Source of the DNA: an uncultured Schlesneria sp.
Lineage (GTDB): Bacteria > Planctomycetota > Planctomycetia > Planctomycetales > Planctomycetaceae
DNA: 64,000 nt
Assembly (NCBI GenBank): GCA_903840265.1
Contig: CAIMFH010000030.1
Span: forward strand, 62,001 to 126,000
Direction: 5' to 3'
In this document: positions 47,356 through 63,352 of the stretch, one piece after another
Layout of the letters: every line of letters starts with the position of its first letter
How positions within the stretch are numbered: position 1 is the first letter of the stretch
Notes under the pieces: model-generated
Database searches by the model: none
What the model saw: only the letters and a program-made list of their open reading frames with translations
What the model was told of the DNA's origin: nothing
Translations under genes and position numbers: made by a program

Positions 47356-47781
47356 TCAATCTTCGCCCCGGTGATCCTGCAGCACTCCGCAGAGTACCCC
47401 CCGACCGGATCCCAAGACATACGCTAAAGCTTCTCCGAGCGACTCGGCCGAGAACGCGACTCGATTGCGATCGATCACCGCGAAGCGATTCGATGCCAGA
47501 GGTTGTTGATCGCGTGGCACGGGTTTGATGTCGGTCATCGATGAAACGTAGAACGACCTTTCGGACCCTTTATCCCGATCCTGGCCGATCATCAGCCACC
47601 GGCCGCGGTTCAGCCGGGGGTTGATCCGTTTGGTTGTCGGGTCCAACCGTTCCTTCCGGGTGTCTCGCACACTGATCACCAACACGCACCGCTGTTCCAG
47701 TGGCGAGCGAATCCCGGCATAGTTGTGTCGCGGATAGAAAAATGAATAGGCACTCCCTGCTTTCAAACGAGTCTTGGTCAC
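47356..47781 (-). CDS. unknown conserved-looking protein
   Basis: A 141-residue soluble basic protein. Its central part has a regular beta pattern (GSAYSFFYPRHNYAGIRS, CVLVISVRDTRKERLD, RGRWLMIGQDRDKGSERSFY, SSMTDIKPV) that suggests an SH3-like or small barrel domain, but no family was assigned. The start is taken as GTG at 47781 because GGAG lies seven bases upstream, whereas upstream codons are atypical. It follows csrA on the same strand after 136 bases. Confidence 0.6.
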   Translation of the reverse strand: MTKTRLKAGSAYSFFYPRHNYAGIRSPLEQRCVLVISVRDTRKERLDPTTKRINPRLNRGRWLMIGQDRDKGSERSFYVSSMTDIKPVPRDQQPLASNRFAVIDRNRVAFSAESLGEALAYVLGSGRGVLCGVLQDHRGED

Positions 47782-51533: not shown

Positions 51534-52316
51534 CTAGACTCCCCATGAGGAAGCGAGCGCCGCAGCGCGATTCAGCGCCGTAATGTGCCGTTCTTGCATG
51601 CTTATCCTGACCGAGCGAGCATGCAGCCAGTGCTCCGTTTCCTGATTCTCGAAGTTCGTCTCCCGTCCAAGGAATCGCATGGTCACACCTTGGTGAGCCA
51701 TGATCTTCGCGAACGTCGTCTCCGTGTCCGGCCATCCCCATTCACACTGAACTCGTGGCAATCCAAACTCATGATGTCCGCGACGGATGGACCATGATGC
51801 GCCAGCGCGATCCAATGCAGGAATATCATAAATCGTGCAGACCATTCCCATCACCGCGTCTGAAAACGGGTTCACATCAGGATATGGCAGGCCATTCTCC
51901 CAAGCGTGCTTGGCAGCTGGGCCGCGCGGCGACATGCCCCATCCGGCAACCCCGCCATACTTCATCTGCGATTCCATGTACGTCACCACGCCACGGTGCA
52001 GCGGGAACACGTCAACATGCGTGGCGAGCAAATATTTCGTGTGACATCGTGCGAAGGCGTAGTCGTGAGCATAGGCAACTGGATCTGACACGTGGCCAGA
52101 GCAAGTCGGCTGTTTTAGATTCAGGCTCGCAAGCTCGACTCGTGGGTTGTCGCGCAGCCTGGACTTGAGCTGGGGGTTGCTGTCAAGACGACCAAATGTG
52201 TCGATCACCAGTAACGACGGTTCGCCATCCTGCGCCAACCACAGGCGACTCGAAACATCTAGAAAGTCGTCATTCCCGTCGCAAGGAATCACGATCATCG
52301 TGTTGGAGTAATGCAT
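51534..52316 (-). CDS. probable glycosyltransferase-like protein of the glycan operon
   Basis: A 260-residue protein with a GT-A-like start (NTMIVIPCDGNDDFLD), a strand-turn CHTKYLLATHVDVFP near 90-103 that could supply the metal-binding acidic site, and GVAGWGMSPRGPA and YDIPALDRAGASW in the second half. No firm family. It overlaps the preceding methyltransferase gene by 22 bases; the ATG at 52316 with AAAGGCG upstream fits best. From the context it would act on the operon's glycan. Function is inferred. Confidence 0.6.
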   Translation of the reverse strand: MHYSNTMIVIPCDGNDDFLDVSSRLWLAQDGEPSLLVIDTFGRLDSNPQLKSRLRDNPRVELASLNLKQPTCSGHVSDPVAYAHDYAFARCHTKYLLATHVDVFPLHRGVVTYMESQMKYGGVAGWGMSPRGPAAKHAWENGLPYPDVNPFSDAVMGMVCTIYDIPALDRAGASWSIRRGHHEFGLPRVQCEWGWPDTETTFAKIMAHQGVTMRFLGRETNFENQETEHWLHARSVRISMQERHITALNRAAALASSWGV

Positions 52317-53476
52317 GGTTCGCCTTTCAAAGTTGGGCAAATCAGTTCGCCACCAGCCGCCACAAACTCGGATTCACGGGCGATGATCTGACGGTAAAAG
52401 TTCCAAGCCATCACGATGGCCGTGTAGGCCGGTGTCAATTGGTCTCGCGGCACAATTGGGATTAGCGCTCCTGGGATCCACAATCCTTGCTTGGCTGGTG
52501 TCGTGTCCGTTGCGAGTTCAACCGTGTCTGTTCCGAGCTTCCAGAAATTCGCCAATTGCGTGGCTTTGGCTGGGGCTCCGTAAAAGCAGACCGGTCGCCG
52601 ATTGCTGATCGCGTCATCAATCCGCGACATCACATATTCTCGTCGAGATTCGAGATCAGATCGGAACTTCTGCCAGTCGTGTTTTCGGAATTCGATCGGC
52701 ATGGAAATTGTTGTTTTTGATGCCCACATCCTGAGCGTTCCGCACTGGGCATCAATGACTTCCCAGTCTTCAATCGCGAAGCCATGACGAGCCAGCAGCG
52801 CACCGAGTGACCACTCGTCGAAGTAACTGACGTGCTCATGGTACATCATCTCGAAGCCAGCTTCTTCGAGTAGGGATTGTAAATACTGAACCTCTACGAC
52901 AAAGATGCCATTCGGCTTGAGTGCCCTGCTTACGCCGCTCATGAAATCATTCAGATTGTCGCTGTGGCCGAGAACATTGCAGGCCACAACAACATCAGCT
53001 CTACCAGCGAATGCGGCAGCGACTGATTCCGACCAATACGCATTGATTGTCGTGCCGCGAGTCAGCCGCTTCCTGGCAATCTCACAATGCGTCTTGGCCG
53101 GATCAACCCCTGCAACATCGAAACCTTCCACTTCCATCGCCTCGAGTAGCGTGCCATCATTGCTGCCAATTTCGATGGCTAGGCCACTCCCCACTCGTTG
53201 CTTGATCGACTGAGCGAGCGATCTGAACAAGGCGGTATTCGGGGTACTCGCCCCAGTGAAGAAGCGGTAATCTGAATACATTACTTCCGGCTCGACGACG
53301 TACCGCAATTGAACCAGGGAGCATTCCGTGCATTCTGCCACGACCAGCGGATAGGCTTCTCCCGGCGATGCGAGGTCGTCCGCTTTTAATAAACTGTTCG
53401 CCAGCGGCATCGACCCCATCGAAAACACGTCGCGCAGGGGGCCGCTACACGAATCGCACATTTCACGAATCAACAT
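52295..53476 (-). CDS. sugar C-methyltransferase (three-domain, NovU/TylCIII type)
   Basis: A 393-residue SAM-dependent methyltransferase. N-terminal zinc-binding region (CDSCSG at 7-12 and CTECSLVQLR) , SAM domain with AIEIGSNDGTLLEAME and VVVACNVLGHSDNLNDF, then YHEHVSYFDEWSLGALL and a C-terminal domain with YGAPAKATQLANF. This matches the C-methyltransferases that make branched-chain deoxysugars from nucleotide-sugar ketones. Its ATG overlaps the previous stop in TGATG. It suggests that the operon's glycan carries a C-branched sugar. Confidence 0.85.
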   Translation of the reverse strand: MLIREMCDSCSGPLRDVFSMGSMPLANSLLKADDLASPGEAYPLVVAECTECSLVQLRYVVEPEVMYSDYRFFTGASTPNTALFRSLAQSIKQRVGSGLAIEIGSNDGTLLEAMEVEGFDVAGVDPAKTHCEIARKRLTRGTTINAYWSESVAAAFAGRADVVVACNVLGHSDNLNDFMSGVSRALKPNGIFVVEVQYLQSLLEEAGFEMMYHEHVSYFDEWSLGALLARHGFAIEDWEVIDAQCGTLRMWASKTTISMPIEFRKHDWQKFRSDLESRREYVMSRIDDAISNRRPVCFYGAPAKATQLANFWKLGTDTVELATDTTPAKQGLWIPGALIPIVPRDQLTPAYTAIVMAWNFYRQIIARESEFVAAGGELICPTLKGEPCITPTR

Positions 53477-55386
53477 CACTTCACTCCATCGAATGGCTTC
53501 ACGAATGTTTCGCAATGGGGCGTTCCTCCCCATTTTATGACATATCGCTCGAGCCCTTTGTTGAACCAGTTGTTGAGAGCTCCTTGCTCTTCCGCACTCA
53601 TCGCCGCCTTCGTAGCGCTAGGTCCGTTGTTCTTGAATCCTGAGCTCAGTGGACAACCAGTCGCCACCGCCGCCAGCTTCGCTCGCCTCGCATAGTCATT
53701 GTCCTCGTGGTAGGCCGGGTAGAATTCGGCGTCCCAAGGACCAATCGCTTTCCACGCTTCGTTGCGAATCATGTGGACGGTAAAGGCCATGCTGCCGTCG
53801 GCGAACACGAGAGGCGTCTTACACTCCAGCATCTTTTCAAATAAATCTGGGCCAACCTCCACATCGTCGGCCCCGACGATTAGCGGGGCGGGCTGGCAGA
53901 GATGCTGTAAGACATTGAAACCGCCAGAGACCCCGAGATTGTAAGGTGGTCGGATGATCTCGATTCGGCGTGACGGATGGCCGGTCCACTTGCCGCCGCT
54001 GTTGTCAACAACGTAGATTTTGGCCGGAAGAAGAGTCGATTTGAGAACCGCTTCGATGGCGAGTTCAAGCAGATCGAACCTGTTGTAAGTCAGGACACCG
54101 AAGAAAAAAGCAGGATTGGCATCAGGAATTGAATCCGAAGGATGACCGACCGCTTGATTGGGCTCATTCGTTGGCACGAGAGCACTTACGATTGGGCGAA
54201 GTTCTATCGGCATTTTCTCCCAACTTAGCCAACGCCCGCGAAACACGCCGTCATCATTCAATGAGAGATGGCATGTCGGGCCGCCATGAATTCCATAGAT
54301 CGTGATGACTTCGCCGATTGGAGTCGGCTCAATCTTCCAGACCTTTTCACAATCGCCAGCGCCTTCGCCGATCGTTCCATCCGACCGAAGTTCGACTTCT
54401 CGCTGGTCGTGGCCGACTCTGTCATATATGTATCTGCCTGGAATCGGCGGAAAGTTTACGCGCATGCGAGATCCTTGAGAAATCTGAGTAGTGGACGGAG
54501 AGTCGAGCAGCTTCATGGCACACATTAAAATGTCGTCCGCCGTTGGTTCGGGGCCGGAGTACTCGGCGAAATTCCAGTTGGGGCGATAGTTCCAATAGTC
54601 GTGATCCTTGCCATCCACCAGATACACCGAATGCGGACTCGGCAAGCACACTCGCGGCGGTTTCAAGGATCGGAAGACGCCCAGAGTCCTGATAGGGGTC
54701 AACGCGGAAAGGTGAAGCGGCCCGCTGTCCACTCCGATCATCAGGTCGCATCGCTCGTATAACGCGCACAGACGATCGATGCCGATGTGGCCCCAGCTAG
54801 GTTTGATTCCTTTGCATCTGGCATCACCGACCATAGGGGCTCGGCGATCGAAGTCGAGGACTACGACGGAACCGCCGGTTTGATCGAGTAGTTTTAGAAT
54901 GACGTCGAAGGCCACCTCTGTTGGTAGAGACTTTCGCTCATGCCAATTGGTGCCTCGACTGTGGAAGCAGATGATTGGGTGTGGCAGGCCTTCCAGAAAC
55001 TGTTCTGCTTCGGCATGGGCTTCGGCTGAGATGAAGTCGTGTGCCGACAGGCGAACTATGCACAACTCGTCCCAGGCTTGTTCTTGCGTCAGACCTAGAT
55101 CTTCCAACTTCGGCATTACGTCGTGACGCAGGCCGAAGGCCACTTTGTTTGTGGCGTGATCAGGCAGACTGAGATCGTCGAAACCGCTTGGATAATGGTA
55201 AGAGTGGTCTGGCAGATCTCCACCTTGGATAATGTTGACGCCGGCTACCTTCCACAGGAACAGCTTGTTTTCTTCGGCTTGGACTGTCACGTCGTAACCA
55301 CGACGTTTGTAGATCTGTACGGCGTGAGCCATGTGGCAAACGTCGCCGAGACCGTGGCGGTCGAACTTAAACTTTAGCTCAGGCAT
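53476..55386 (-). CDS. GT9 (heptosyltransferase-like) + GT2 fusion
   Basis: A 636-residue protein. The N-terminal ~300 residues are GT-B family 9: KFKFDRHGLGDVCHMAHAVQ, PIICFHSRGTNWHERKSLP and the diagnostic CDLMIGVDSGPLHLSAL near 213-229. A middle segment (~310-400) with YIYDRVGHDQREVELRSDG and GVFRGRWLSWE was not recognised. The C-terminal ~210 residues are GT-A family 2: FGVLTYNRFDLLELAIEAVL, IYVVDNSGG, LIVGADDVEV (DxD-like) and FYPAYHEDNDYARRA. So one protein may transfer two sugars. It overlaps the RfaE2-type gene by eight bases. Confidence 0.8.
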   Translation of the reverse strand: MPELKFKFDRHGLGDVCHMAHAVQIYKRRGYDVTVQAEENKLFLWKVAGVNIIQGGDLPDHSYHYPSGFDDLSLPDHATNKVAFGLRHDVMPKLEDLGLTQEQAWDELCIVRLSAHDFISAEAHAEAEQFLEGLPHPIICFHSRGTNWHERKSLPTEVAFDVILKLLDQTGGSVVVLDFDRRAPMVGDARCKGIKPSWGHIGIDRLCALYERCDLMIGVDSGPLHLSALTPIRTLGVFRSLKPPRVCLPSPHSVYLVDGKDHDYWNYRPNWNFAEYSGPEPTADDILMCAMKLLDSPSTTQISQGSRMRVNFPPIPGRYIYDRVGHDQREVELRSDGTIGEGAGDCEKVWKIEPTPIGEVITIYGIHGGPTCHLSLNDDGVFRGRWLSWEKMPIELRPIVSALVPTNEPNQAVGHPSDSIPDANPAFFFGVLTYNRFDLLELAIEAVLKSTLLPAKIYVVDNSGGKWTGHPSRRIEIIRPPYNLGVSGGFNVLQHLCQPAPLIVGADDVEVGPDLFEKMLECKTPLVFADGSMAFTVHMIRNEAWKAIGPWDAEFYPAYHEDNDYARRAKLAAVATGCPLSSGFKNNGPSATKAAMSAEEQGALNNWFNKGLERYVIKWGGTPHCETFVKPFDGVK

Positions 55387-55870
55387 GAGTGCGAATCCTT
55401 GTGATGATCCCAGTCGTGCTGATCGGAAGTCCGTCGAGGATGACCACCTTGGCCCCGTATGATTTGGCGAGAGCGGCTTCGGGCAGGTTTTCTTCCGAGT
55501 AACCTGGACCTTTCACGATGATGTCGGGTCGCAGGCGCTCGATCAGGTTGTTTGGCGTGTCGTCTGCAAAGAGATGAACTTCGTCGACGTACCGGCAGGC
55601 GGCGACGATTCCTTGTCGCCAGCGCTGTGAGATGATTGGTCGCTCGGGACCCTTTATCCTCTGGATCGAAGCGTCTGTGTTGAGGCCGACAATCAGCTTG
55701 GTTCCGAGTGCCCTGCAGCGACGCAGGAAGTCGACGTGTCCATAGTGGAACAGGTCGAAACACCCGTTCGTGAAGACCGTTACCGGCATCGCCACCTCTT
55801 CTGCGGCCCTGCCCGCCACAAACAGGGGCGACGGCAGTGGCGATGCCGGTTGATGTTGAAGTTCATTCAT
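55379..55870 (-). CDS. RfaE2-type nucleotidyltransferase (HldE C-domain)
   Basis: A 163-residue cytidylyltransferase-fold protein. The HxGH signature is at TNGCFDLFHYGHVDFL (34-49), followed by LIVGLNTDASIQRIKGPERP, VKGPGYSEENLPE and a final ISTTGIITRIR. It is the separate form of the domain that activates heptose 1-phosphate to ADP-heptose. The kinase half is at 48602-49594. With two GT9 proteins here, an ADP-heptose-like donor is plausible. ATG overlaps the upstream GT9 stop (ATGA) and its own stop overlaps the next gene. Confidence 0.85.
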   Translation of the reverse strand: MNELQHQPASPLPSPLFVAGRAAEEVAMPVTVFTNGCFDLFHYGHVDFLRRCRALGTKLIVGLNTDASIQRIKGPERPIISQRWRQGIVAACRYVDEVHLFADDTPNNLIERLRPDIIVKGPGYSEENLPEAALAKSYGAKVVILDGLPISTTGIITRIRTHA

Positions 55871-56811
55871 ACAGCTAACCTCGCGTATCGTTGAATGATG
55901 CTCACGACATCGTCGGGCTGAATCATCGCCATGCATTTGGCGACTGGCGTTTTCAGGCCGATGACAGGGTGTTCACAGAGTTGCTTATCTTTGGGATCGC
56001 CATCACCGAGTGGGACGACTCGCGATTTCCAGCAGGCGTTTTGTTGACAGCAGGGCAACGCGCCGATCGTGTGCAGCGTGTGCATTTTGGGGTAACACAG
56101 AAACGTCACTGGTTCGCGACCGCCAGCCAGGTAGACGTAGGGCTTCTCGAAGGCGGCACACAGATGCATCAGGTAGGTCACCGGTCCCAATCCGATGGCG
56201 GAGTGATAGACGAGACGATGCAGCATGCGATGTGTCGTGTCGCCCAGGACCGAGATGCACCGTTCCAGGCGATAATGGTTATGCCCGGCTTCGCCGATTT
56301 GAACCCACTGGAACAAGCCCAGCGTCCGATCAATCACTTCCTGGTAGTATTCGATCGGCCACTGCTTGATCGTGTAGTCGCACTTGGAACCGGCGACGAG
56401 GACTCCGTAAGGCGTCTTGCGACCGTGCGTGAAGTGCTCCTGCAGCATTGTCAGCCAATTCTTTTCTTCATCCGCCAAGTAGATGAACGGACGGTTAGAG
56501 CGGGCGTAGAGCGGCCGACCAAGTTTCTCGCCCAGGAACTCTGTGTAGCACGAGACGAAGTTGATTGGTGTCTGGTTCGAGCGATTGATTTGCGGATATT
56601 CCATCTGGATTCGTGTGGCTTCGGGGTCGTTGTCGGGGATGGGGGTGATCCAGGGGTTGTGTTGCCAGATGTCGGGGCAGGGGGTGCGGATGTCGGTGAC
56701 GTATTGGCCGGGGTAGGTTTCGTGCAGCGATTGGACGGCGACGGTCATGGTCATGATGTCGCCTGGGCATAGGGGGCAGCAGAGGATTAGTTTTCGCGGG
56801 GGCTTTTTCAT
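55867..56811 (-). CDS. GT9 glycosyltransferase (heptosyltransferase family)
   Basis: A 314-residue GT-B family 9 protein and first gene of the glycan operon. LILCCPLCPGDIMTMTVAVQ is the N-terminal nucleotide-sugar-fold start; KCDYTIKQWPIEYYQEVID, FQWVQIGEAGHNHY and SAIGLGPVTYLMHLCAAF (the family's GxDSGxxHLAA-like site, here without Asp/Ser) follow. Several cysteines near the C-terminus (LPCCQQNACWK, KQLCEHP) are unusual and may hold a metal. It likely transfers a heptose-like sugar to an envelope glycan. 56812-56868 is the gap to the preceding small gene. Confidence 0.8.
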   Translation of the reverse strand: MKKPPRKLILCCPLCPGDIMTMTVAVQSLHETYPGQYVTDIRTPCPDIWQHNPWITPIPDNDPEATRIQMEYPQINRSNQTPINFVSCYTEFLGEKLGRPLYARSNRPFIYLADEEKNWLTMLQEHFTHGRKTPYGVLVAGSKCDYTIKQWPIEYYQEVIDRTLGLFQWVQIGEAGHNHYRLERCISVLGDTTHRMLHRLVYHSAIGLGPVTYLMHLCAAFEKPYVYLAGGREPVTFLCYPKMHTLHTIGALPCCQQNACWKSRVVPLGDGDPKDKQLCEHPVIGLKTPVAKCMAMIQPDDVVSIIQRYARLAV

Positions 56812-57362: not shown

Positions 57363-57831
57363 CGGTTGTTTCAGACGGGGATGATTGTGCCTTGAAACAG
57401 CGAAATGTCAATATGCTTCTTCGACGATTTTAGTAAGTTTCCCGCGAATTGTCGGTAGCGTGGACTTAACTCGTTGAGGCGAAAGAGGGACCACGAATCT
57501 CACAAATGCACACGAATGGGAAGAAGAGAGATTCAAGCGAAGTCGCGAAGAGCTGTGACGAGCGAGAGCGGACTGTGACAGTTGAAGATTTCCGAATAAA
57601 TGGTTGAAGAGAAGCTTGGAGTGCAGAGCGTCACGGAGGAACTGGGTGGTATATGAAAGTAACTAGGAACGAATCGACAGATAAGTATTACGGTGCCACA
57701 GCGAATGCATGTGCGATTCAACAAGGTTGTAGAGAAGCAAGAAGCGTGAAAGTGGAGTCGAAACGCGAAAGCCCCAGCGATATGCTGAGGGGCTGGGGCC
57801 TGTTTCGTTTTATCTTGGTTGGTCAAGCGGC
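57363..57831. other. intergenic stretch with hairpins
   Basis: No gene is supported. 'agagggaccacgaatctcacaaatgcac' at 57483-57515 is a dispersed word also near 885. A strong GCCCCAGC...GCTGGGGC hairpin lies at 57773-57801. Confidence 0.45.
57773..57815. terminator. GCCCCAGC hairpin, possibly bidirectional terminator
   Basis: GCCCCAGC (57773-57780) pairs with GCTGGGGC (57794-57801). The plus side is followed by CTGTTTCGTTTTAT and the minus side by TTTCGCGTTTCG. Confidence 0.5.
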
Positions 57832-58032
57832 ATGCCAGAGCGCAGAGATCCCCGTTCATGGGCCGTATGGGGAGCGATTGCGGGAATGATCGCGGGTCGA
57901 CTGTCCTATGATGCGAATATTGCCACGATTGAAGACATCCGATTTCGGTTTTATGTCGGGGCAATCGTTGGTGCGCTGGGCGGACTCGCCCTAGCCAAAC
58001 TTCTCGACGCCAAGAGGTCGCTGCAGGACTGA
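57832..58032 (+). CDS. small two-span membrane protein
   Basis: A 66-residue protein with two hydrophobic segments (SWAVWGAIAGMIAGRLSYD; FYVGAIVGALGGLALAKLL), both with GxxxG-like spacing, and a basic end. No family known. The ribosome-binding site is weak (AAGCGG). It is plus-strand in a minus-strand region and converges on a phosphatase-like fragment. Confidence 0.5.
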   Translation: MPERRDPRSWAVWGAIAGMIAGRLSYDANIATIEDIRFRFYVGAIVGALGGLALAKLLDAKRSLQD

Positions 58033-58058
58033 GACAACGGGATTCATGGAGCAGTCCA

Positions 58059-58466
58059 TTATTCGTGGTGTGACGTTGCTGTCGGATCCGCTTGACCCTG
58101 CTTCACGAGATACGCGTTCAACAGCTCTCGTTGAGTGGCGTTGATATCGACACCTGATCTGAGTGCTCGCAGGCGTGACAATGCGGAATCGATGTTCTGT
58201 TCGAAGCCATTGCGAATCAAGAACGCCACGACAATGGTGGATGTTCTTCCGTGTCCTAACGCGCAATGGACGTAGATCGGATTCGCAGCTGTCGTCTTCT
58301 TCAACCAGTCGACCAGCTCCTGCAGATGCTCGACGGTGGTCACGGTACCATCTGAAACGGAGGGTGCCCTTGCAGTGGCGACAGGGTGGCGATGTTTGTG
58401 AATTGCAGTCCGCCGCGATGAGACGATTATTGGGTTTCGTCGGAATCGGAGGGTGCATCTCCGCAT
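58059..58466 (-). pseudogene. truncated dual-specificity phosphatase-like gene
   Basis: The C-terminal ~95 codons encode a DSP/PTP-like domain end with the intact P-loop VHCALGHGRTSTIVVAF (Cys-x5-Arg) and the preceding VDWLKKTTAANPIYV. The N-terminal half of a normal DSP is missing. Its place is taken by sequence similar (near 58366-58400) to 58683-58716 within the membrane protein end. It also overlaps the small membrane protein gene at 58427-58660. So probably a 5'-truncated relic, though a short active form is not excluded. Confidence 0.6.
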
Positions 58467-58660
58467 CGCACCACAACCCAGACCGCAAAAGTAATCAAGC
58501 CCATTGCGATGACGACGGCAAGCATGAACAGTTCAAAACCACCAGCGACGCCAAAACAGACTCCAAGAAACACAGACACGAAGGCCAGCGGGACCGCACA
58601 GCCCGCTAGGATCAGTGCCGCTATTTTGCGACGATTGTGATCGTCGTTGACATTATTCAT
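58427..58660 (-). CDS. small two-span membrane protein, second of a coupled pair
   Basis: A 77-residue protein with two spans (KIAALILAGCAVPLAFVSVF and ELFMLAVVIAMGLITFAVWV) and an acidic tail (DAPSDSDETQ). The ATG overlaps the previous stop as ATGA. It may be an immunity or accessory membrane protein to the lipase gene upstream; there is no direct evidence. Confidence 0.65.
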   Translation of the reverse strand: MNNVNDDHNRRKIAALILAGCAVPLAFVSVFLGVCFGVAGGFELFMLAVVIAMGLITFAVWVVVRCGDAPSDSDETQ

Positions 58661-59214
58661 CGCAGGTCGTCTCTTGGAACGGCGTGTGGCCTTGCAGCGG
58701 CGACAGGGTGGCGAGGTTTTCGAATGGCGAGCGCGTAGAGCATCGCCAACAGGCTCATGCTCATGACTCCAAACCAGACAAAGTCGACATCAGGCATCAT
58801 TACGAGCATGACGTTTGCGAACATAAATAACGGGATTGGATAAAAATAGAGGTACCAGACTGCTTGATCGTCGTTCCGAACCATAATCCGGATCGCCAGT
58901 GCTGACAGCGTCACCAGTAAACCACTGACGAGCATGACCACTCCAGCGACGGTCAAACAGGCCGAGGGGGGAGCGTTATCGCAAAACGCAACGACGAGGA
59001 CTGTTCCCATTGTTCCTGCCAACCCGGCTGCCAACGTTAATGCGGTGTTCAACAACAGCAGGATGAACCGAACGATCTTTTCGACATCTGCCAGATCTCG
59101 ATGGGTCCGGATGCCCGCTAGCTTCGACAGCCAATAGATACCGCCCAGCGTAATAGCTGCCACAAACACCATTAGACCCGACGACTGAAGCCGATATTCT
59201 GTTTCGGGATCCAC
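58657..59214 (-). CDS. multi-span membrane protein, first of a coupled pair
   Basis: A 185-residue protein with about five spans (GLMVFVAAITLGGIYWL; LLLLNTALTLAAGLAGT; CLTVAGVVMLVSGLLVT; YFYPIPLFMFANVMLVM; FVWFGVMSMSLLAMLYAL) and an Arg/Pro-rich tail. No family recognised. The start is GTG at 59214 with AAAGG six bases upstream. It lies 230 bases downstream of the lipase gene on the same strand; lipase effectors are often followed by membrane-located immunity proteins, so this is a candidate. Confidence 0.65.
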   Translation of the reverse strand: MDPETEYRLQSSGLMVFVAAITLGGIYWLSKLAGIRTHRDLADVEKIVRFILLLLNTALTLAAGLAGTMGTVLVVAFCDNAPPSACLTVAGVVMLVSGLLVTLSALAIRIMVRNDDQAVWYLYFYPIPLFMFANVMLVMMPDVDFVWFGVMSMSLLAMLYALAIRKPRHPVAAARPHAVPRDDLR

Positions 59215-59446
59215 GATACACCTTTGCCATTGTCTGGAGGCGAAACTCGCCCTGTAACCCATCAAATCGATGGCTGCACGACTCTCTTGCCATCAAGGCG
59301 TTGCTGTGTTGGGTTTATAACGCGATTTTGTTGTTCTCCAATACATCGCACCACCGAAATAGTTGGAAACGATTCACGTGGAGGGGTGACGTGCGCACGG
59401 AATGTGTCGGTATAATCGCTATCGCCGACAGCGAAGAGAACCAATC

Positions 59447-61609
59447 TCATGGCGCTGGGCGACTTAAGCCTTTCTGAATGTGGTCCATTCCGTGCTTGGC
59501 GATAGAGGTTCCAGAGCCGGAATCGAGCCAATAGTTCGTTCCAACCCCGTCAGGCATGAGATATGGAATAGCCTGGGTGGCGGGCGCGGTAGGCCCCTTC
59601 TGCAGAATTTTAGGAATTGGTAAACGTCCGTCTTGGAGAGAGCTCAGGACTTCGCCCTGAACTCGAAATGCTCGAATTAGCTCTGTCGCATTGCTGAGAT
59701 TCATTTTATGCCGATTCACAGTCCATGGATGTACTCCTGCGGCGTTGAATGTGACGGTGTCTCCAATACGATTGACGATCGCAGCGGCCGATGCGAGGCC
59801 TCCGCCGAGTGAGTGCCCGGTTAATCGCAGATTGGGAAACTTCTTCTTTAGCTGCGCGGTAAGTTGAATTGCCTGTTCGTATTGTCGATCCTGGAATCCA
59901 AGCCCTTGTCGGCCATTCGCGACGACAAGGTCTCTTCGGTCTTCAAAAGTAGTTCCTGCAAAGCCAAGAACTGCTTCTCCGGTCTTATGGTTGACGAATA
60001 ATACTGCATTGAAACTGGTCTCATCATTGCGAAAGTCGCGAACTTTTGACCATCCCAAATCTGTTGCCGTTTTCGATAGTGGCACGTCTTCATAAGATGC
60101 GCTCGCCAATTCTCCCATAATGCGAGCGTCTTTGATCCACTTGAGCAGGGGTCGGCCTCCCTCTCTGCTGCTTGGTCCCGTTTCGGTCAGCTTCGGAAGG
60201 TCAGGCAGATTCAGGCCGTTTGATAGTGATGCTCGATCACGATTGATCTCCGCTTGATATCGCTTCACCCTTTGTTGCGAATAATTGATGAATGCTTCCA
60301 GCGTTTTAATTCGATCCCGAGTTGCGCGAGTCACTATGTAGTGACCCTTGAGCTGCTTCAGTTCTTTGACCGCCGCATCCTGTTGTCGTGTCAGAGCGTC
60401 AACCTGACTTTGCCGCTCTGCGATGCGTTTCTGAAGCTCACGGCTTCGCTGCTCTTCCGGTGTTGGTTCTACAGGATCGGTTAGGAGTTTTGTCGCAGAC
60501 GAATGGTGATGAATCTGCCTCCATCCGGAATCGCCTTCAATGGGGGAATGCGACTTGTCGAATGCTTGAACAGCGCCCCCAAGTCCAGTCCCCCTCGCTT
60601 TGACCTGCCGGCCTTTGTTATCGACACCTTCCTGATAACCGGTGGTCGTCAATCTACCGAAGCCGTGCTGATCAAATTCAGAATCCAACTGCCGCCATTG
60701 TTTTACCAAGGCGCTCCTTTCATTCTGGAGCCTCCGTTCGTCGGCCTGAGATTCCACGGTCCAGGCCCCATATTGGTACTTCGCGAGTTCTGCATCTTTC
60801 TGGCGAATCTGATTTCGAAGAGCGCTCCCACGTTCAACAAGCTCTAGAAACTTCTTTGATTGGTCGCGACCTAGACCCGGCACATGCAGACCTGAGTGCT
60901 GTTTGTACTTCCATTCAGGATGAGACGAGACAACATAGTGCTGCCGGAGTGGCGTCGTGAAATGCTGCTGGAATGGTTCAGTGGCAGCTGCCGTCGTTCC
61001 TTCACCCGCTTTGACAAACTGTCCACCGTTGCGTTGACCCGCCTCAGCACGAGGGTGCTTTGAGGCGTCGAACTGACCGTTTGAAGCAGATCCCTTCGTC
61101 GCCTCCTTCTCGGCCTGGTACCGAGCCAGGATCGTGTTTGACGTAGAAACGTCGGCGTCTGGCTTACTCAGTGGGTACCACTTGAGGTGCGGTTTCGGCG
61201 GTGGTGAATCTGCCAGCAGACCGCAGGCGCGGTACCAGTTGTATCGGGCGATGGCCCAGTCGACGCGCGACCAGGTGCGTGGGTCGTCGCCCTTTGTCTG
61301 CTCTCCGTTCTCTGTCTGATGCCGTGCGGCTTCGACTCGTTGGGAATAGCGGTGCCGTTGGGTTGAGGCGAAAGGTGGTTGATATGTTGTTGCCAGGTCG
61401 TCGTCTGGCTTGCTCAGCGGGTACCACTTGAGATGCGGTTTCGGTGGCGGTGCGTCTGGTGACCGCTCGTGCGTTGTGGTCACGGTGTTGTGCGGCGAAT
61501 CGCTTAGCATTCCGCAGGCGCGGTACCAGTTGTACCGGGCGATGGCCCATTCGACGCGTGTCATGGGTGGTGCTGATCCGAGACTGGCTTGGCGTTTGGT
61601 TGAGGTCAT
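59447..61609 (-). CDS. phage-linked class 3 lipase with duplicated N-terminus
   Basis: A 720-residue soluble protein. N-terminus: two near-identical ~60-85-residue units, each with WAIARYNWYRACG and PPPKPHLKWYPLSKPD. Then FDASKHPRAEAG and GGQFVKAG, a phrase typical of phage head-associated proteins, a long charged coiled-coil middle (~260-480), and a C-terminal Lipase_3 domain with FVNHKTGEAVLGFAGT, nucleophile elbow RLTGHSLGGGLASAAA, and a late His in the Lys/Met-rich end (SIAKHGMDHIQKG). It follows the portal gene by a short gap. ATG at 61609 has GGAGG nine bases upstream. A phage-carried lipolytic toxin is plausible. Confidence 0.8.
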   Translation of the reverse strand: MTSTKRQASLGSAPPMTRVEWAIARYNWYRACGMLSDSPHNTVTTTHERSPDAPPPKPHLKWYPLSKPDDDLATTYQPPFASTQRHRYSQRVEAARHQTENGEQTKGDDPRTWSRVDWAIARYNWYRACGLLADSPPPKPHLKWYPLSKPDADVSTSNTILARYQAEKEATKGSASNGQFDASKHPRAEAGQRNGGQFVKAGEGTTAAATEPFQQHFTTPLRQHYVVSSHPEWKYKQHSGLHVPGLGRDQSKKFLELVERGSALRNQIRQKDAELAKYQYGAWTVESQADERRLQNERSALVKQWRQLDSEFDQHGFGRLTTTGYQEGVDNKGRQVKARGTGLGGAVQAFDKSHSPIEGDSGWRQIHHHSSATKLLTDPVEPTPEEQRSRELQKRIAERQSQVDALTRQQDAAVKELKQLKGHYIVTRATRDRIKTLEAFINYSQQRVKRYQAEINRDRASLSNGLNLPDLPKLTETGPSSREGGRPLLKWIKDARIMGELASASYEDVPLSKTATDLGWSKVRDFRNDETSFNAVLFVNHKTGEAVLGFAGTTFEDRRDLVVANGRQGLGFQDRQYEQAIQLTAQLKKKFPNLRLTGHSLGGGLASAAAIVNRIGDTVTFNAAGVHPWTVNRHKMNLSNATELIRAFRVQGEVLSSLQDGRLPIPKILQKGPTAPATQAIPYLMPDGVGTNYWLDSGSGTSIAKHGMDHIQKGLSRPAP

Positions 61610-61644
61610 TGAGGGGTGCCTCCGTTGGTGTTGACGTGGTCTGT

Positions 61645-63279
61645 TCACGATTGACGAGTCAGCGAGCGGTTGTGTCGCTGGTCCGCATTTGTGTTGGGTT
61701 GGGCTGAAGGTGTTGTCGGGGCTGTATCGCTCTTGGAAGACACTGGTGGCTCAAGGCCGCCACCAGTGGCACCCGAAGTGACGGGCGGCTTCCCGCTGGG
61801 CTGCTGACCATGGGGGTCACTCTTTTGAGTTAGTTGGCCTTTCGGGTCCAACACGTCGTCGCCCGGGCCGGGGATGGCGGCTCCGACGAGTTGATAGAGG
61901 TCGCGTTTGCGGAACGACAAGCCGCGATCGAGCAGCGACGTCCAGGCTTGCAGTTGCTTGTCGATGTCGGCCTGTTCGGTTTGGATCACGAACCGCGGGC
62001 GGAATCCGGGCTCGGACCAGAGTCCCTTCTGCACGTTGATCTGAATAATCGAGCCGAGCAGGTCGCTGGTCAGCGTTTCTTCCAGGTTGGCCGAGTCGCT
62101 CTGCAGGATTTGCAGTAGCGTGTCGGCGTGCAGTTCGGCGACACCCGAACCCATTCCCGTCGCTTCTGATTCGGAGGACAGCACCTGACCGAGGATGTAC
62201 CGCTTGATGCGATGGCCGAAGTACTGCGTCAGCAACTGATGCAGCGTTTCGACTCCCTGGAAGCCGGGATCGATGATCTCGACTCCGTACTGGCCGGTAT
62301 CGCCGACAGGGACGGGGACCAGCAGAATATGTTGCTCGCCGCTGTTGTAGCCTTCGGCTGCCGATTTGGCTTCGTCGTGAGCCTGCTGATTTCCCTGCGG
62401 ATACTTCCAGACCTGGATGCCACCTGCCATTCGTTCCAGAAACTCCATCAAGAACGCCATGGTTTCCTGCTTCTGGTACCACTCCCAATAAATGACCGAG
62501 CGTATTCCGACGCCGTAGATCGATCCCGCTCGCACGCCGTCGGCATAGTCGGCGTCTTCGATGTGATGCTTGTGGATCAGCAGCAACCGTCGCTCGTTGG
62601 GAGAGAGGAAGTAGCCCAGGCCATAGTCGGTCGGCTGCACCTTCCAACGTCCGTTGATCACGTCACCCACGCTGTAGCGACTGCCCACGCGGATGCCGAC
62701 CTGGCCTTCGTATTCACCCGGTTGCAGCGGCCGGTCGGGGCGTTGTTGACGGAACACCAGCTTGTCACCGTTCAGCGGCTTCCAGCCCCAGTCATCCTGG
62801 TGTCGCGGCGTTGGCATCCAGACGGATTTGTTGTTAACGATCTGAACTCCCCAGCGATGCTGGATGCCGTACTTGCCGTACCAGATCGCGTGCTGACAGT
62901 TGCGCCGGTACTCGGTGAAGTGACTGATCCGCCGACAGATCGCTTCTAATAGCGAGCAGAATTCACGCTGATCGGCGGACGAACTGTTTTCAGATTCGAT
63001 ATGCCAGTTCAAGAGTGCGACGGATCGCTGGCGAGAATCGAGGCATTCGCGGATGCCGACATCGTTCCGCATGAAGCGGGCGTTGGACCGATCGTCCAGC
63101 AGCGCCTCGTCGTAGTCGCGATAGACCGACGCGAGCGACGTGTACCGATTAAGGAACGTATCGACATGACTGACCGGATATTTACCCCGATTGGGAGCGG
63201 TCCAGTCGACTTGGCCGCCGTCGCGTCGACGTTGGCCGTAGGTGACTCCAGACATCAAAGATTGATTGCGAACATCCAT
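61645..63279 (-). CDS. Mu-type phage portal protein (DUF935)
   Basis: A 544-residue protein of the DUF935 (Mu gp29-like) portal family, which forms the ring at the DNA entry vertex of phage heads. Recognisable: NDVGIRECLDSRQRSVALLN, AIWYGKYGIQHRWGV, RRLLLIHKHHIEDADYADG, RAGSIYGVGIRSVIYWEW, and LGQVLSSESEATGMGSGVAE near 365-385. The tail is Pro/Ser/Thr-rich. GGAGG eight bases before the ATG at 63279 sets the start; terminator element C lies just upstream in the leader. No terminase, capsid or tail gene is seen in the window. Confidence 0.85.
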   Translation of the reverse strand: MDVRNQSLMSGVTYGQRRRDGGQVDWTAPNRGKYPVSHVDTFLNRYTSLASVYRDYDEALLDDRSNARFMRNDVGIRECLDSRQRSVALLNWHIESENSSSADQREFCSLLEAICRRISHFTEYRRNCQHAIWYGKYGIQHRWGVQIVNNKSVWMPTPRHQDDWGWKPLNGDKLVFRQQRPDRPLQPGEYEGQVGIRVGSRYSVGDVINGRWKVQPTDYGLGYFLSPNERRLLLIHKHHIEDADYADGVRAGSIYGVGIRSVIYWEWYQKQETMAFLMEFLERMAGGIQVWKYPQGNQQAHDEAKSAAEGYNSGEQHILLVPVPVGDTGQYGVEIIDPGFQGVETLHQLLTQYFGHRIKRYILGQVLSSESEATGMGSGVAELHADTLLQILQSDSANLEETLTSDLLGSIIQINVQKGLWSEPGFRPRFVIQTEQADIDKQLQAWTSLLDRGLSFRKRDLYQLVGAAIPGPGDDVLDPKGQLTQKSDPHGQQPSGKPPVTSGATGGGLEPPVSSKSDTAPTTPSAQPNTNADQRHNRSLTRQS

Positions 63280-63299
63280 CGGGGCAGCCTCCAAAGACA

Positions 63300-63352
63300 A
63301 AAAAAGGCCGCAATCTCGTGATAAACGAGACTGCGGCCTGTTGGTTACAGTG
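63300..63352 (-). terminator. leader-terminator element, copy C
   Basis: On the minus strand ACTGTAACCAAC precedes stem AGGCCGCAGTCTCGT (63338-63324) pairing with ACGAGATTGCGGCCT (63318-63304), then T7, and GGAGG of the portal gene about 15 bases further. Flank conserved with copies A and B; stem differs in sequence but keeps GGCC.CA. Confidence 0.75.

What the first reader, a model, noticed from the sequence alone, without database searches (positions are those of the whole stretch)
57832..63279. Orphan phage portal plus lipase module with two candidate immunity proteins
A Mu-type portal protein and a long class 3 lipase carrying a phage-head-like KHPR/GGQF phrase are consecutive, with no terminase, capsid or tail gene in the window. 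Lipase_3 with an intact GHSLGG elbow at the C-terminus of a large repeat/coiled-coil protein resembles polymorphic-toxin design, and two overlapping small membrane genes follow, as immunity genes do for lipolytic effectors. This may be a domesticated phage structure that carries a lipolytic toxin.
Basis: partly seen in the sequence, partly recalled or inferred. Interest (0 to 1): 0.7.

Follow-up and report, generated by a model that had tools for sequence, protein, structure and literature searches.

The report
Swappable toxin beside a scattered phage
In a planctomycete bacterium (Schlesneria) the gene for a phage DNA gate sits directly in front of a toxin-like gene whose end resembles a membrane-fat-cutting enzyme, a sister species carries a different end at the same spot, and other shell genes of the phage lie scattered nearby, so this looks like an exchangeable antibacterial weapon tied to an old phage shell.

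Summary
In detail: a Mu-type portal gene is followed by a 720-733 aa protein with an intact lipase triad. The portal is not an orphan: terminase lies 18.5 kb and capsid about 45 kb to its right on the same contig, with host genes between. The lipase protein is one of five in this genome that share an N-terminal header (seen in two Schlesneria genomes) but have unrelated ends, among them a DddA-like deaminase and a WHH nuclease. At the orthologous site in a sister species portal and header are kept at 90% DNA identity while the end is replaced: a polymorphic toxin. The lipase is closest to the T6SS effector Tle6 (PDB 7UBZ), yet this genome gave no match to the T6SS sheath family VipB. The header ends in a KHPR..GGQF motif shared with portal-region proteins of related phages, which suggests capsid loading. 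The two small membrane genes are not lipase-specific: they persist in the sister beside a non-lipase end. Portal, terminase and capsid were under strong constraint (dN/dS 0.02-0.04), but this genome and its sister each lack different structural genes in the stretches searched, so a working particle is doubtful. Verdict: polymorphic toxin well supported; capsid delivery plausible; domesticated particle possible but weakened.

The parts
61645..63300 (-). Mu-type phage portal protein (TTG start at 63300; ATG alternative at 63279)
   Evidence: PF06074 E 2.9e-39; phrog_113 E 1.1e-25; dN/dS 0.038 against the G012 orthologue
59447..61609 (-). polymorphic toxin: header + KHPR linker + middle region + Tle6-like lipase C-terminus (ORF opens at GTG 61648; ATG 61609 is the likelier start)
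61151..61609 (-). repeat header, two copies of a RV(E/D)WAIARYNWYRACG...KPHLKWYPLSK unit, shared by 5 proteins of this genome and 2 of G012
61016..61060 (-). KHPRAEAGQRNGGQF linker motif, also in portal-region proteins of related phages
59447..60151 (-). lipase toxin domain (triad S613, E666, H719)
   Evidence: A3 profile matches PDB 7ubz_B E 6.1e-30; single sequence E 2.8e-23; homologue at the C-end of an RHS protein in G034
59355..61201 (-). segment without DNA similarity to the orthologous G012 locus: the swapped toxin end; no gene other than the toxin was recognised in it
   Evidence: blastn; ORFs of 57400-59700
58657..59265 (-). fast-evolving protein with five hydrophobic stretches (202 aa), kept in G012 beside a non-lipase toxin end
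   Evidence: 57% identity, dN/dS 0.444; hydropathy
58427..58660 (-). small hydrophobic protein (77 aa), kept in G012
58059..58466 (-). dual-specificity phosphatase domain, shorter than the 259-aa G012 copy
   Evidence: PF00782, PF22785
56869..57411 (-). 180-aa protein weakly like a 102-aa gene of the G007 prophage
   Evidence: 32-33% identity over 52 aa
52295..56811 (-). glycan module (glycosyltransferase 9, nucleotidyltransferase, GT9+GT2 fusion, C-methyltransferase); its methyltransferase is 30% identical to one behind the structural genes of the G007 prophage
   Evidence: nucleotidyltransferase named by eye; phage origin is inference

Best explanation
The window gene is a polymorphic toxin encoded in the slot directly behind a phage portal gene. 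A conserved header plus a KHPR..GGQF linker carries exchangeable C-terminal domains; here the domain is a Tle6-like lipase. The portal is one piece of a phage head module that lies split over about 60 kb among host genes, has descended with the host since the split from the sister species, and is found in the four genomes of one Schlesneria clade. Proposed mechanism: the header-linker part is bound to or packaged in a phage-type head near the portal, as MuF-type and polyvalent proteins are thought to be, the toxin is injected with DNA into another bacterium, and the lipase cuts its membrane phospholipids. Shown here: conserved header, swapped ends, lipase family with intact triad, portal neighbour, split phage, past constraint. 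Inferred: head loading, injection, phospholipase activity, antibacterial role. In this genome the particle may now be incomplete.
For: Header in five proteins of this genome whose last 220 residues show no similarity to each other at E 0.01; ends identified as DddA-like PF14428 E 5.1e-11, WHH PF14414 and Colicin-DNase PF12639, Tle6-like lipase. Three gene pairs compared with G012 (two of header toxins, one of the C19 group): all three break sharply inside the toxin gene, and two of the three have conserved DNA on both sides. Tox-MPTase4 (PF15640 E 3.9e-11) and DUF6572 (E 7.5e-28) genes follow the G012 copy. The lipase domain also ends an RHS protein in G034 (TIGR03696). KHPR..G.F motif: 24 rows of 1037 called genes over all loci fetched by then, each a toxin of this kind, a portal-fused protein or a protein within about 7 kb behind a portal; several rows are overlapping copies of one gene, and the loci had been fetched for portals or toxins, so the sample is biased. 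Another header toxin abuts the end of the capsid block (C30:179490). No VipB match in this genome. N-terminal parts of the three pairs at dN/dS 0.09-0.23.
Against: No MuF domain found. Portal next to this header was seen in only two genomes, one ancestral event. No header was found in the whole genomes of G011, G007, G053, G047 and G028, which have related portals, nor in viral contigs. 3 of the 5 header proteins of this genome (C118 twice, C65) have no neighbour that I recognised by eye as a phage gene. This genome lacks, in C30:62001-189472, one structural gene kept in the other four genomes and the start of the next. No linked immunity gene for the lipase. The G011 blocks stand among other host genes than in G000, so their position is not conserved.
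Confidence: 0.58

Rival explanations
1. Decaying prophage: phage pieces split by rearrangement, now losing genes, with toxin genes kept as phage cargo or as selfish swapping cassettes. No particle is made in this strain and the toxin has no delivery route of its own.
For: Deletion of the 166-189 aa gene and the start of the next in this genome; three other genes missing and a fourth truncated in G012; late frameshift of the G012 portal. Patchy in the genus: capsid and terminase in the same 5 of 15 genomes. Absence was tested on the whole genome only for C30:176311 in G012; the others only on the fetched contig stretches.
Against: Portal, terminase and capsid at dN/dS 0.038, 0.042, 0.021 with dS like that of host neighbours; the carriers G000, G012, G011, G013 form one rpoB clade, 99/97 support; N-terminal toxin parts are also constrained.
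Confidence: 0.3
2. Gene-transfer-agent-like domesticated particle: the split head blocks are still expressed together, package DNA, and carry the header toxins as payload.
For: Split blocks with host genes between; constraint and descent with the host; G011 keeps 12 of the 18 G007 phage proteins probed, on two contigs.
Against: Structural genes missing from the stretches searched in G000 and G012; G011 has no header toxin; no evidence of expression or DNA packaging.
Confidence: 0.2
3. T6SS effector: the lipase is an ordinary Tle6-type effector that landed behind a phage gene.
For: Best solved relative is a T6SS lipase with ankyrin immunity.
Against: No VipB match in this genome or in G012, G011, G007, G013, while 4 of 15 genus genomes have one; no VgrG, Hcp or PAAR family matched in the protein at E 0.1. 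Other T6SS families were not searched.
Confidence: 0.05
4. The two overlapping small membrane genes are the cognate immunity genes of the lipase.
For: Position directly behind the toxin; the 202-aa gene evolves fast, dN/dS 0.444; G012 also holds a lipase domain of this type, some 78 kb away, so the genes could serve there too.
Against: Both genes lie outside the swapped segment and are kept in G012 beside a non-lipase end. Lipase homologues in G012 and G034 are followed by ankyrin genes instead, as reported for Tle6.
Confidence: 0.07

Closest known systems
MuF polymorphic toxins (Jamet et al. 2017, PMC5576092; MuF phage-capsid-like system of Zhang et al. 2012, PMC3482391)
   Same: Gene directly behind a phage portal; exchangeable C-terminal toxin; proposed packing into the phage head; terminase and capsid genes in the wider neighbourhood
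   Different: N-terminus has no Pfam MuF match; five header copies in this genome, three of them with no phage gene recognised beside them; phage genes split among host genes; the Zhang table row for MuF, as seen, does not list planctomycetes
Tle6 phospholipase effector, Enterobacter cloacae Tle (PDB 7UBZ, 9CYS; PMC11470151)
   Same: Lipase domain and Ser-Glu-His triad align; ankyrin gene next to two of the three homologous domains compared
   Different: Different N-terminus, no VipB match in the genome, no adjacent ankyrin gene in the window
Polyvalent phage proteins with InPase domains behind or fused to the portal (Iyer et al. 2017, PMC5512222)
   Same: Same slot: G007 carries one behind its portal (PF18823); by eye, similar proteins lie behind or fused to related portals in G198, G345 and viral contigs, several with the KHPR motif
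   Different: No InPase match in the window protein; it ends in a lipase-type toxin domain
Gene transfer agents
   Same: Split, constrained phage structural genes that descend with the host
   Different: Structural set incomplete in the stretches searched of this genome; DNA transfer untested; toxin cargo (defining features of GTAs are recalled, not taken from a paper read here)

Membership tests
Polymorphic toxin system | conserved N-terminal part with variable C-terminal toxin domains | tested here: met
   5 header proteins in G000 with mutually unrelated ends; 3 of 3 G000-G012 gene pairs compared (two header toxins, one C19 group) show C-terminal replacement, 2 of 3 with conserved DNA on both sides
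Polymorphic toxin system | toxin domain shared with other toxin families | tested here: met
   same lipase domain at the end of an RHS-core protein in G034
Polymorphic toxin system | adjacent cognate immunity gene | tested here: inconclusive
   candidates beside sibling toxins (DUF6572; SUKH-like matches under Pfam's cut-off; their immunity role is recalled) but none specific to the lipase in the window
MuF polymorphic toxin | MuF domain (PF04233 or PF06152) | tested here: not met
   no match at E up to 0.1; the MuF3 and MuF4 profiles of the 2017 paper were not available
MuF polymorphic toxin | gene immediately downstream of a phage portal gene | tested here: met
MuF polymorphic toxin | encoded within a temperate phage or prophage | tested here: not met
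   phage pieces split among host genes; one of these, at C30:139905, is present in 15 of 15 genus genomes
Tle6 phospholipase | sequence relation and catalytic Ser-Glu-His | tested here: met
Tle6 phospholipase | adjacent ankyrin-repeat immunity gene | tested here: not met
   no ankyrin gene beside the window copy; present beside the G012 and G034 domains. An unlinked one is not excluded: a weak ankyrin relative lies on C133 of this genome (29% identity, E 1.1e-7)
Tle6 phospholipase | T6SS-delivered | tested here: not met
   0 VipB matches in G000, listed as 99.98% complete
Tle6 phospholipase | MODIC crosslink residues (Arg180, Lys461) | not tested
   no alignment covering both residues was made
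Gene transfer agent | phage structural genes split, descending with the host, under purifying selection | tested here: met
   descent by dS is shown for the G000-G012 pair only
Gene transfer agent | complete set of particle genes | tested here: not met
   of 18 G007 phage proteins probed, hits in the fetched stretches: G000 15 (one partial), G012 13 (one truncated), G011 12; deletions in G000 and G012
Gene transfer agent | packages and transfers host DNA | not testable with these tools
   needs culture

The most novel reading that the evidence does not exclude
A clade of Schlesneria has turned a split phage head into a vehicle that, in the window species and its sister, is shared by a family of exchangeable header toxins encoded around the genome (five in the window species): a capsid-based weapon system whose header has no MuF match and whose payload includes a T6SS-type lipase and a DddA-like DNA deaminase.
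Probability: 0.2. Interest if true: 0.85.

Novelty: new variant of a known kind. Interest (0 to 1): 0.6.

Why it matters
Capsid-delivered polymorphic toxins were proposed in 2012 and named MuF toxins in 2017; the papers I saw in part present head loading as a prediction. Here the header plus KHPR..GGQF linker is a short, conserved candidate loading signal shared by toxins and phage portal-region proteins, which makes the loading idea directly testable. The locus also shows a Tle6-type lipase in a genome without a VipB match, next to a phage portal, and a phage head module that stayed constrained while scattered among host genes.

Tried and rejected
Orphan-portal idea: rejected, terminase and capsid are on the same contig. 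One large prophage with cargo: rejected, because the gene at C30:139905, between portal and terminase, has orthologues in 15 of 15 genus genomes, and a helicase and a transporter between the blocks have orthologues in some relatives without the phage (G008, G003 and others). Membrane genes as lipase-specific immunity: rejected. T6SS effector: rejected for this genome on VipB. Simple 'functional domesticated particle': I first leaned to it on dN/dS and the rpoB tree, then found different deletions in G000 and G012 and lowered it. PHROGs on ten further genes of the phage regions gave only two weak matches of unknown function. Header in viral contigs: none. Portal in cultured phages: 8 records, at most 31% identity. 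Paper searches (listings only) for planctomycete gene transfer agents, Schlesneria prophages, planctomycete polymorphic toxins, and toxin plus gene-transfer-agent combinations showed no title on this system in the rows listed.
Full report
What is there. The window is C30:62001-126000 of a 7.49 Mb genome. On the minus strand the portal gene (61645-63300) is followed by the lipase gene. Pfam gives Portal_Mu at E 2.9e-39 for the first, and for the second only a sub-threshold Lipase_3 match (20.2 bits, cut-off 22) plus a weak HR1_TOCA match. The ORF opens at a GTG that overlaps the portal stop, but the six other header proteins aligned start 13 residues later at an ATG (61609) with GGAGG upstream, so the protein is probably 720 aa.

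The organism. The window genome is labelled the same genus.

The portal is not alone. To the right of the window, on the same contig, lie a terminase large subunit (C30:143762-145264; Terminase_6N, phrog_2) and a block at C30:168175-179246 with a scaffold-like gene (phrog_673), a capsid (phrog_1005), a head-tail adaptor (phrog_195) and further genes without a named family. An apparently intact prophage on contig C32 of the relative G007 carries the homologues in one run, with an integrase and recombination genes named by eye. In the window genome the run is cut into three blocks. The gene at C30:139905, between portal and terminase, has orthologues in all 15 genus genomes searched; a transporter and a helicase between the blocks also have orthologues in some relatives without the phage. 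The blocks therefore stand among host genes. In G012 portal, terminase and capsid start at 108, 171 and 186 kb of one contig; in G011 terminase and portal sit on C33 and the capsid block on C40, by my arithmetic at least about 42 kb apart. In G013 the contigs are too short to tell.

Inheritance and constraint. Capsid and terminase were each found in 5 of 15 genus genomes, the same five. On an rpoB tree of 13 genomes (G009 without a match and G004 in fragments were left out) G000, G012, G011 and G013 form one clade, support 99/97; G007 lies outside. The tree puts G011 beside G000 and G012 with only 88/88, while capsid and terminase are most alike between G011 and G013 when G000-G012 is set aside, and the G011 blocks have other host neighbours than those of G000; so descent with the host is shown well for the G000-G012 pair and is only suggested for the clade. 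Thirty-one G000-G012 gene pairs were compared. dN/dS was 0.038 for portal, 0.042 for terminase and 0.021 for capsid, but higher for some phage-region genes (small terminase 0.203, 151291 0.261, 172704 0.377). dS in the 19 phage-region genes (0.32-0.55) resembles that of the eight genes I labelled host (0.27-0.59), two of which belong to the glycan module that may itself be of phage origin.

Results against a working particle. A deletion in G000 (G012 coordinates about 187369-188530) removes a 166-189 aa gene that G012, G011, G013 and G007 keep, and the start of the next gene. G012 in turn has no homologues of C30:175664, 176311 and 178884 in its fetched contig, a truncated 173814 homologue, and a frameshift late in its portal. 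Only the 176311 absence was tested on the whole G012 genome (short weak hit only). Of 18 G007 phage proteins probed, G000 has hits for 15, G012 for 13 and G011 for 12 in the stretches fetched. G011 has no header toxin. So I give a functional particle in this strain a low probability.

The toxin family. A search of 59 relatives found matches to the toxin in 4; the header part was in G000 and G012 only. In 297 class genomes the header was in G000 plus one weak partial hit in G149; G012 is not among the matches, so it was evidently not drawn. The scan of named genome contigs gave two loci, both of G012, and no relative was found in viral contigs. G000 has five header proteins: the window gene, C30:179490, two on C118, one on C65. 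Their last 220 residues show no similarity to each other at E 0.01. They are a Tle6-like lipase, a DddA-like deaminase (PF14428, E 5.1e-11), a WHH/colicin-DNase nuclease, and two ends without a Pfam match above cut-off. A second group on C19 and on G012 C106 has another N-terminus before the same KHPR motif.

C-terminal replacement. At the window locus portal and header match G012 at 90.3% DNA identity up to window 61202; similarity resumes at 59354, behind the toxin stop. G012 has there a different end in two overlapping ORFs, the second without a Pfam match, then a DUF6572 gene (E 7.5e-28) and a Tox-MPTase4 gene (E 3.9e-11). The C118 toxin and its G012 counterpart break in the same way with conserved DNA on both sides. 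The C19/C106 pair also breaks, but its match begins only about 0.5 kb upstream of the gene and no longer flank matched. The N-terminal parts of the three pairs have dN/dS 0.23, 0.21 and 0.09.

The lipase. A profile of the window domain and two homologues matches PDB 7ubz_B, T6SS lipase effector, at E 6.1e-30; the window sequence alone gives 2.8e-23. S613, E666 and H719 align with Ser341, Glu393 and His448. The paper, read in passages, names the group Tle6 and says it is invariably encoded with ankyrin-repeat immunity proteins. Ankyrin genes do follow the homologous domains in G012 and G034; none follows the window copy, though a weak ankyrin relative elsewhere in this genome (C133) leaves an unlinked partner possible. 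This genome has no match to the T6SS sheath family VipB; 4 of 15 genus genomes do. In G034 the domain ends an RHS-core protein. Of the three lipase loci only the window's is next to a portal.

Why a phage head is suspected. In related phages the slot behind the portal, or the portal's own C-end, often carries large polyvalent proteins: in G007 with an InPase domain (E 6.9e-54), in G198, G345 and several viral contigs read by eye. Portal relatives were found in 12 of 347 class genomes and 12 viral loci; cultured phages gave 8 records at no more than 31% identity. The KHPR..G.F motif was searched in 1037 called genes over all loci fetched by then: 24 rows hit, each a toxin of this kind, a portal-fused protein or a protein within about 7 kb behind a portal; several rows are overlapping copies of one gene, and the loci were fetched because they hold portals or toxins. 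Iyer et al. 2017 (passages) and Zhang et al. 2012 (passages) propose that such proteins are packaged in the head. Jamet et al. 2017 (abstract and the first part of Results) describe MuF toxins as MuF-domain proteins encoded directly behind the portal; the window protein has no Pfam MuF match. It works like one in layout but is not shown to be a member.

Immunity. The 202-aa and 77-aa genes are both kept in G012 beside a non-lipase end and lie outside the swapped segment, so they are not specific to the lipase. The 202-aa gene evolves fast (dN/dS 0.444), which leaves a general role open.

Judgement. Polymorphic toxin: strong. Lipase family: strong; activity untested. Head loading: plausible. 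Working domesticated particle in this strain: doubtful. Kind: new variant of capsid-associated polymorphic toxins.

Noticed in passing
C30:179490-182218 (L005/L006, right of the window): Second header toxin on this contig, ending in a DddA-like DNA deaminase, directly behind the capsid block, followed by a 160-aa gene that may be its immunity gene (no Pfam match).
   Followed up: partly
G000:C19:89037-90818 (L053:7037-8818) and G012:C106:116711-118444 (L054:6711-8444): Second toxin group with another N-terminus before the same KHPR motif and different C-termini in the two species.
   Followed up: partly
window 52295-56811: Glycosyltransferase and methyltransferase module; a similar kind of module lies behind the structural genes of the G007 prophage, so it may be of phage origin.
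   Followed up: partly
window 47380-47757: Stretch encoding a relative (48% over 126 aa) of a 156-aa gene that lies next to the integrase in the G007 prophage; phage-related pieces may reach further left in the window.
   Followed up: no
window 58059-58466: Dual-specificity phosphatase, Pfam also matching the polymorphic-toxin-system phosphatase family Tc-R-P; the G012 copy is longer (259 aa).
   Followed up: no
C30:127176-138435 (L003): Several paralogous small proteins with a GWRRK start and a LLSAYLILWKPRK-like end, in both orientations, between portal and terminase (seen by eye).
   Followed up: no
G012:C82:112618-113001 (L040:2618-3001): Tox-MPTase4 metallopeptidase toxin gene standing alone behind the swapped toxin.
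   Followed up: yes
G034:C508 (L052:7816-9192): RHS-core protein ending in the same lipase domain, with an ankyrin gene downstream.
   Followed up: partly
C30:164469-164780 (L005:4469-4780): 103-aa SUKH-like gene (by eye) near the capsid block, close in sequence to the candidate immunity gene beside the C65 toxin, with no toxin recognised next to it.
   Followed up: no
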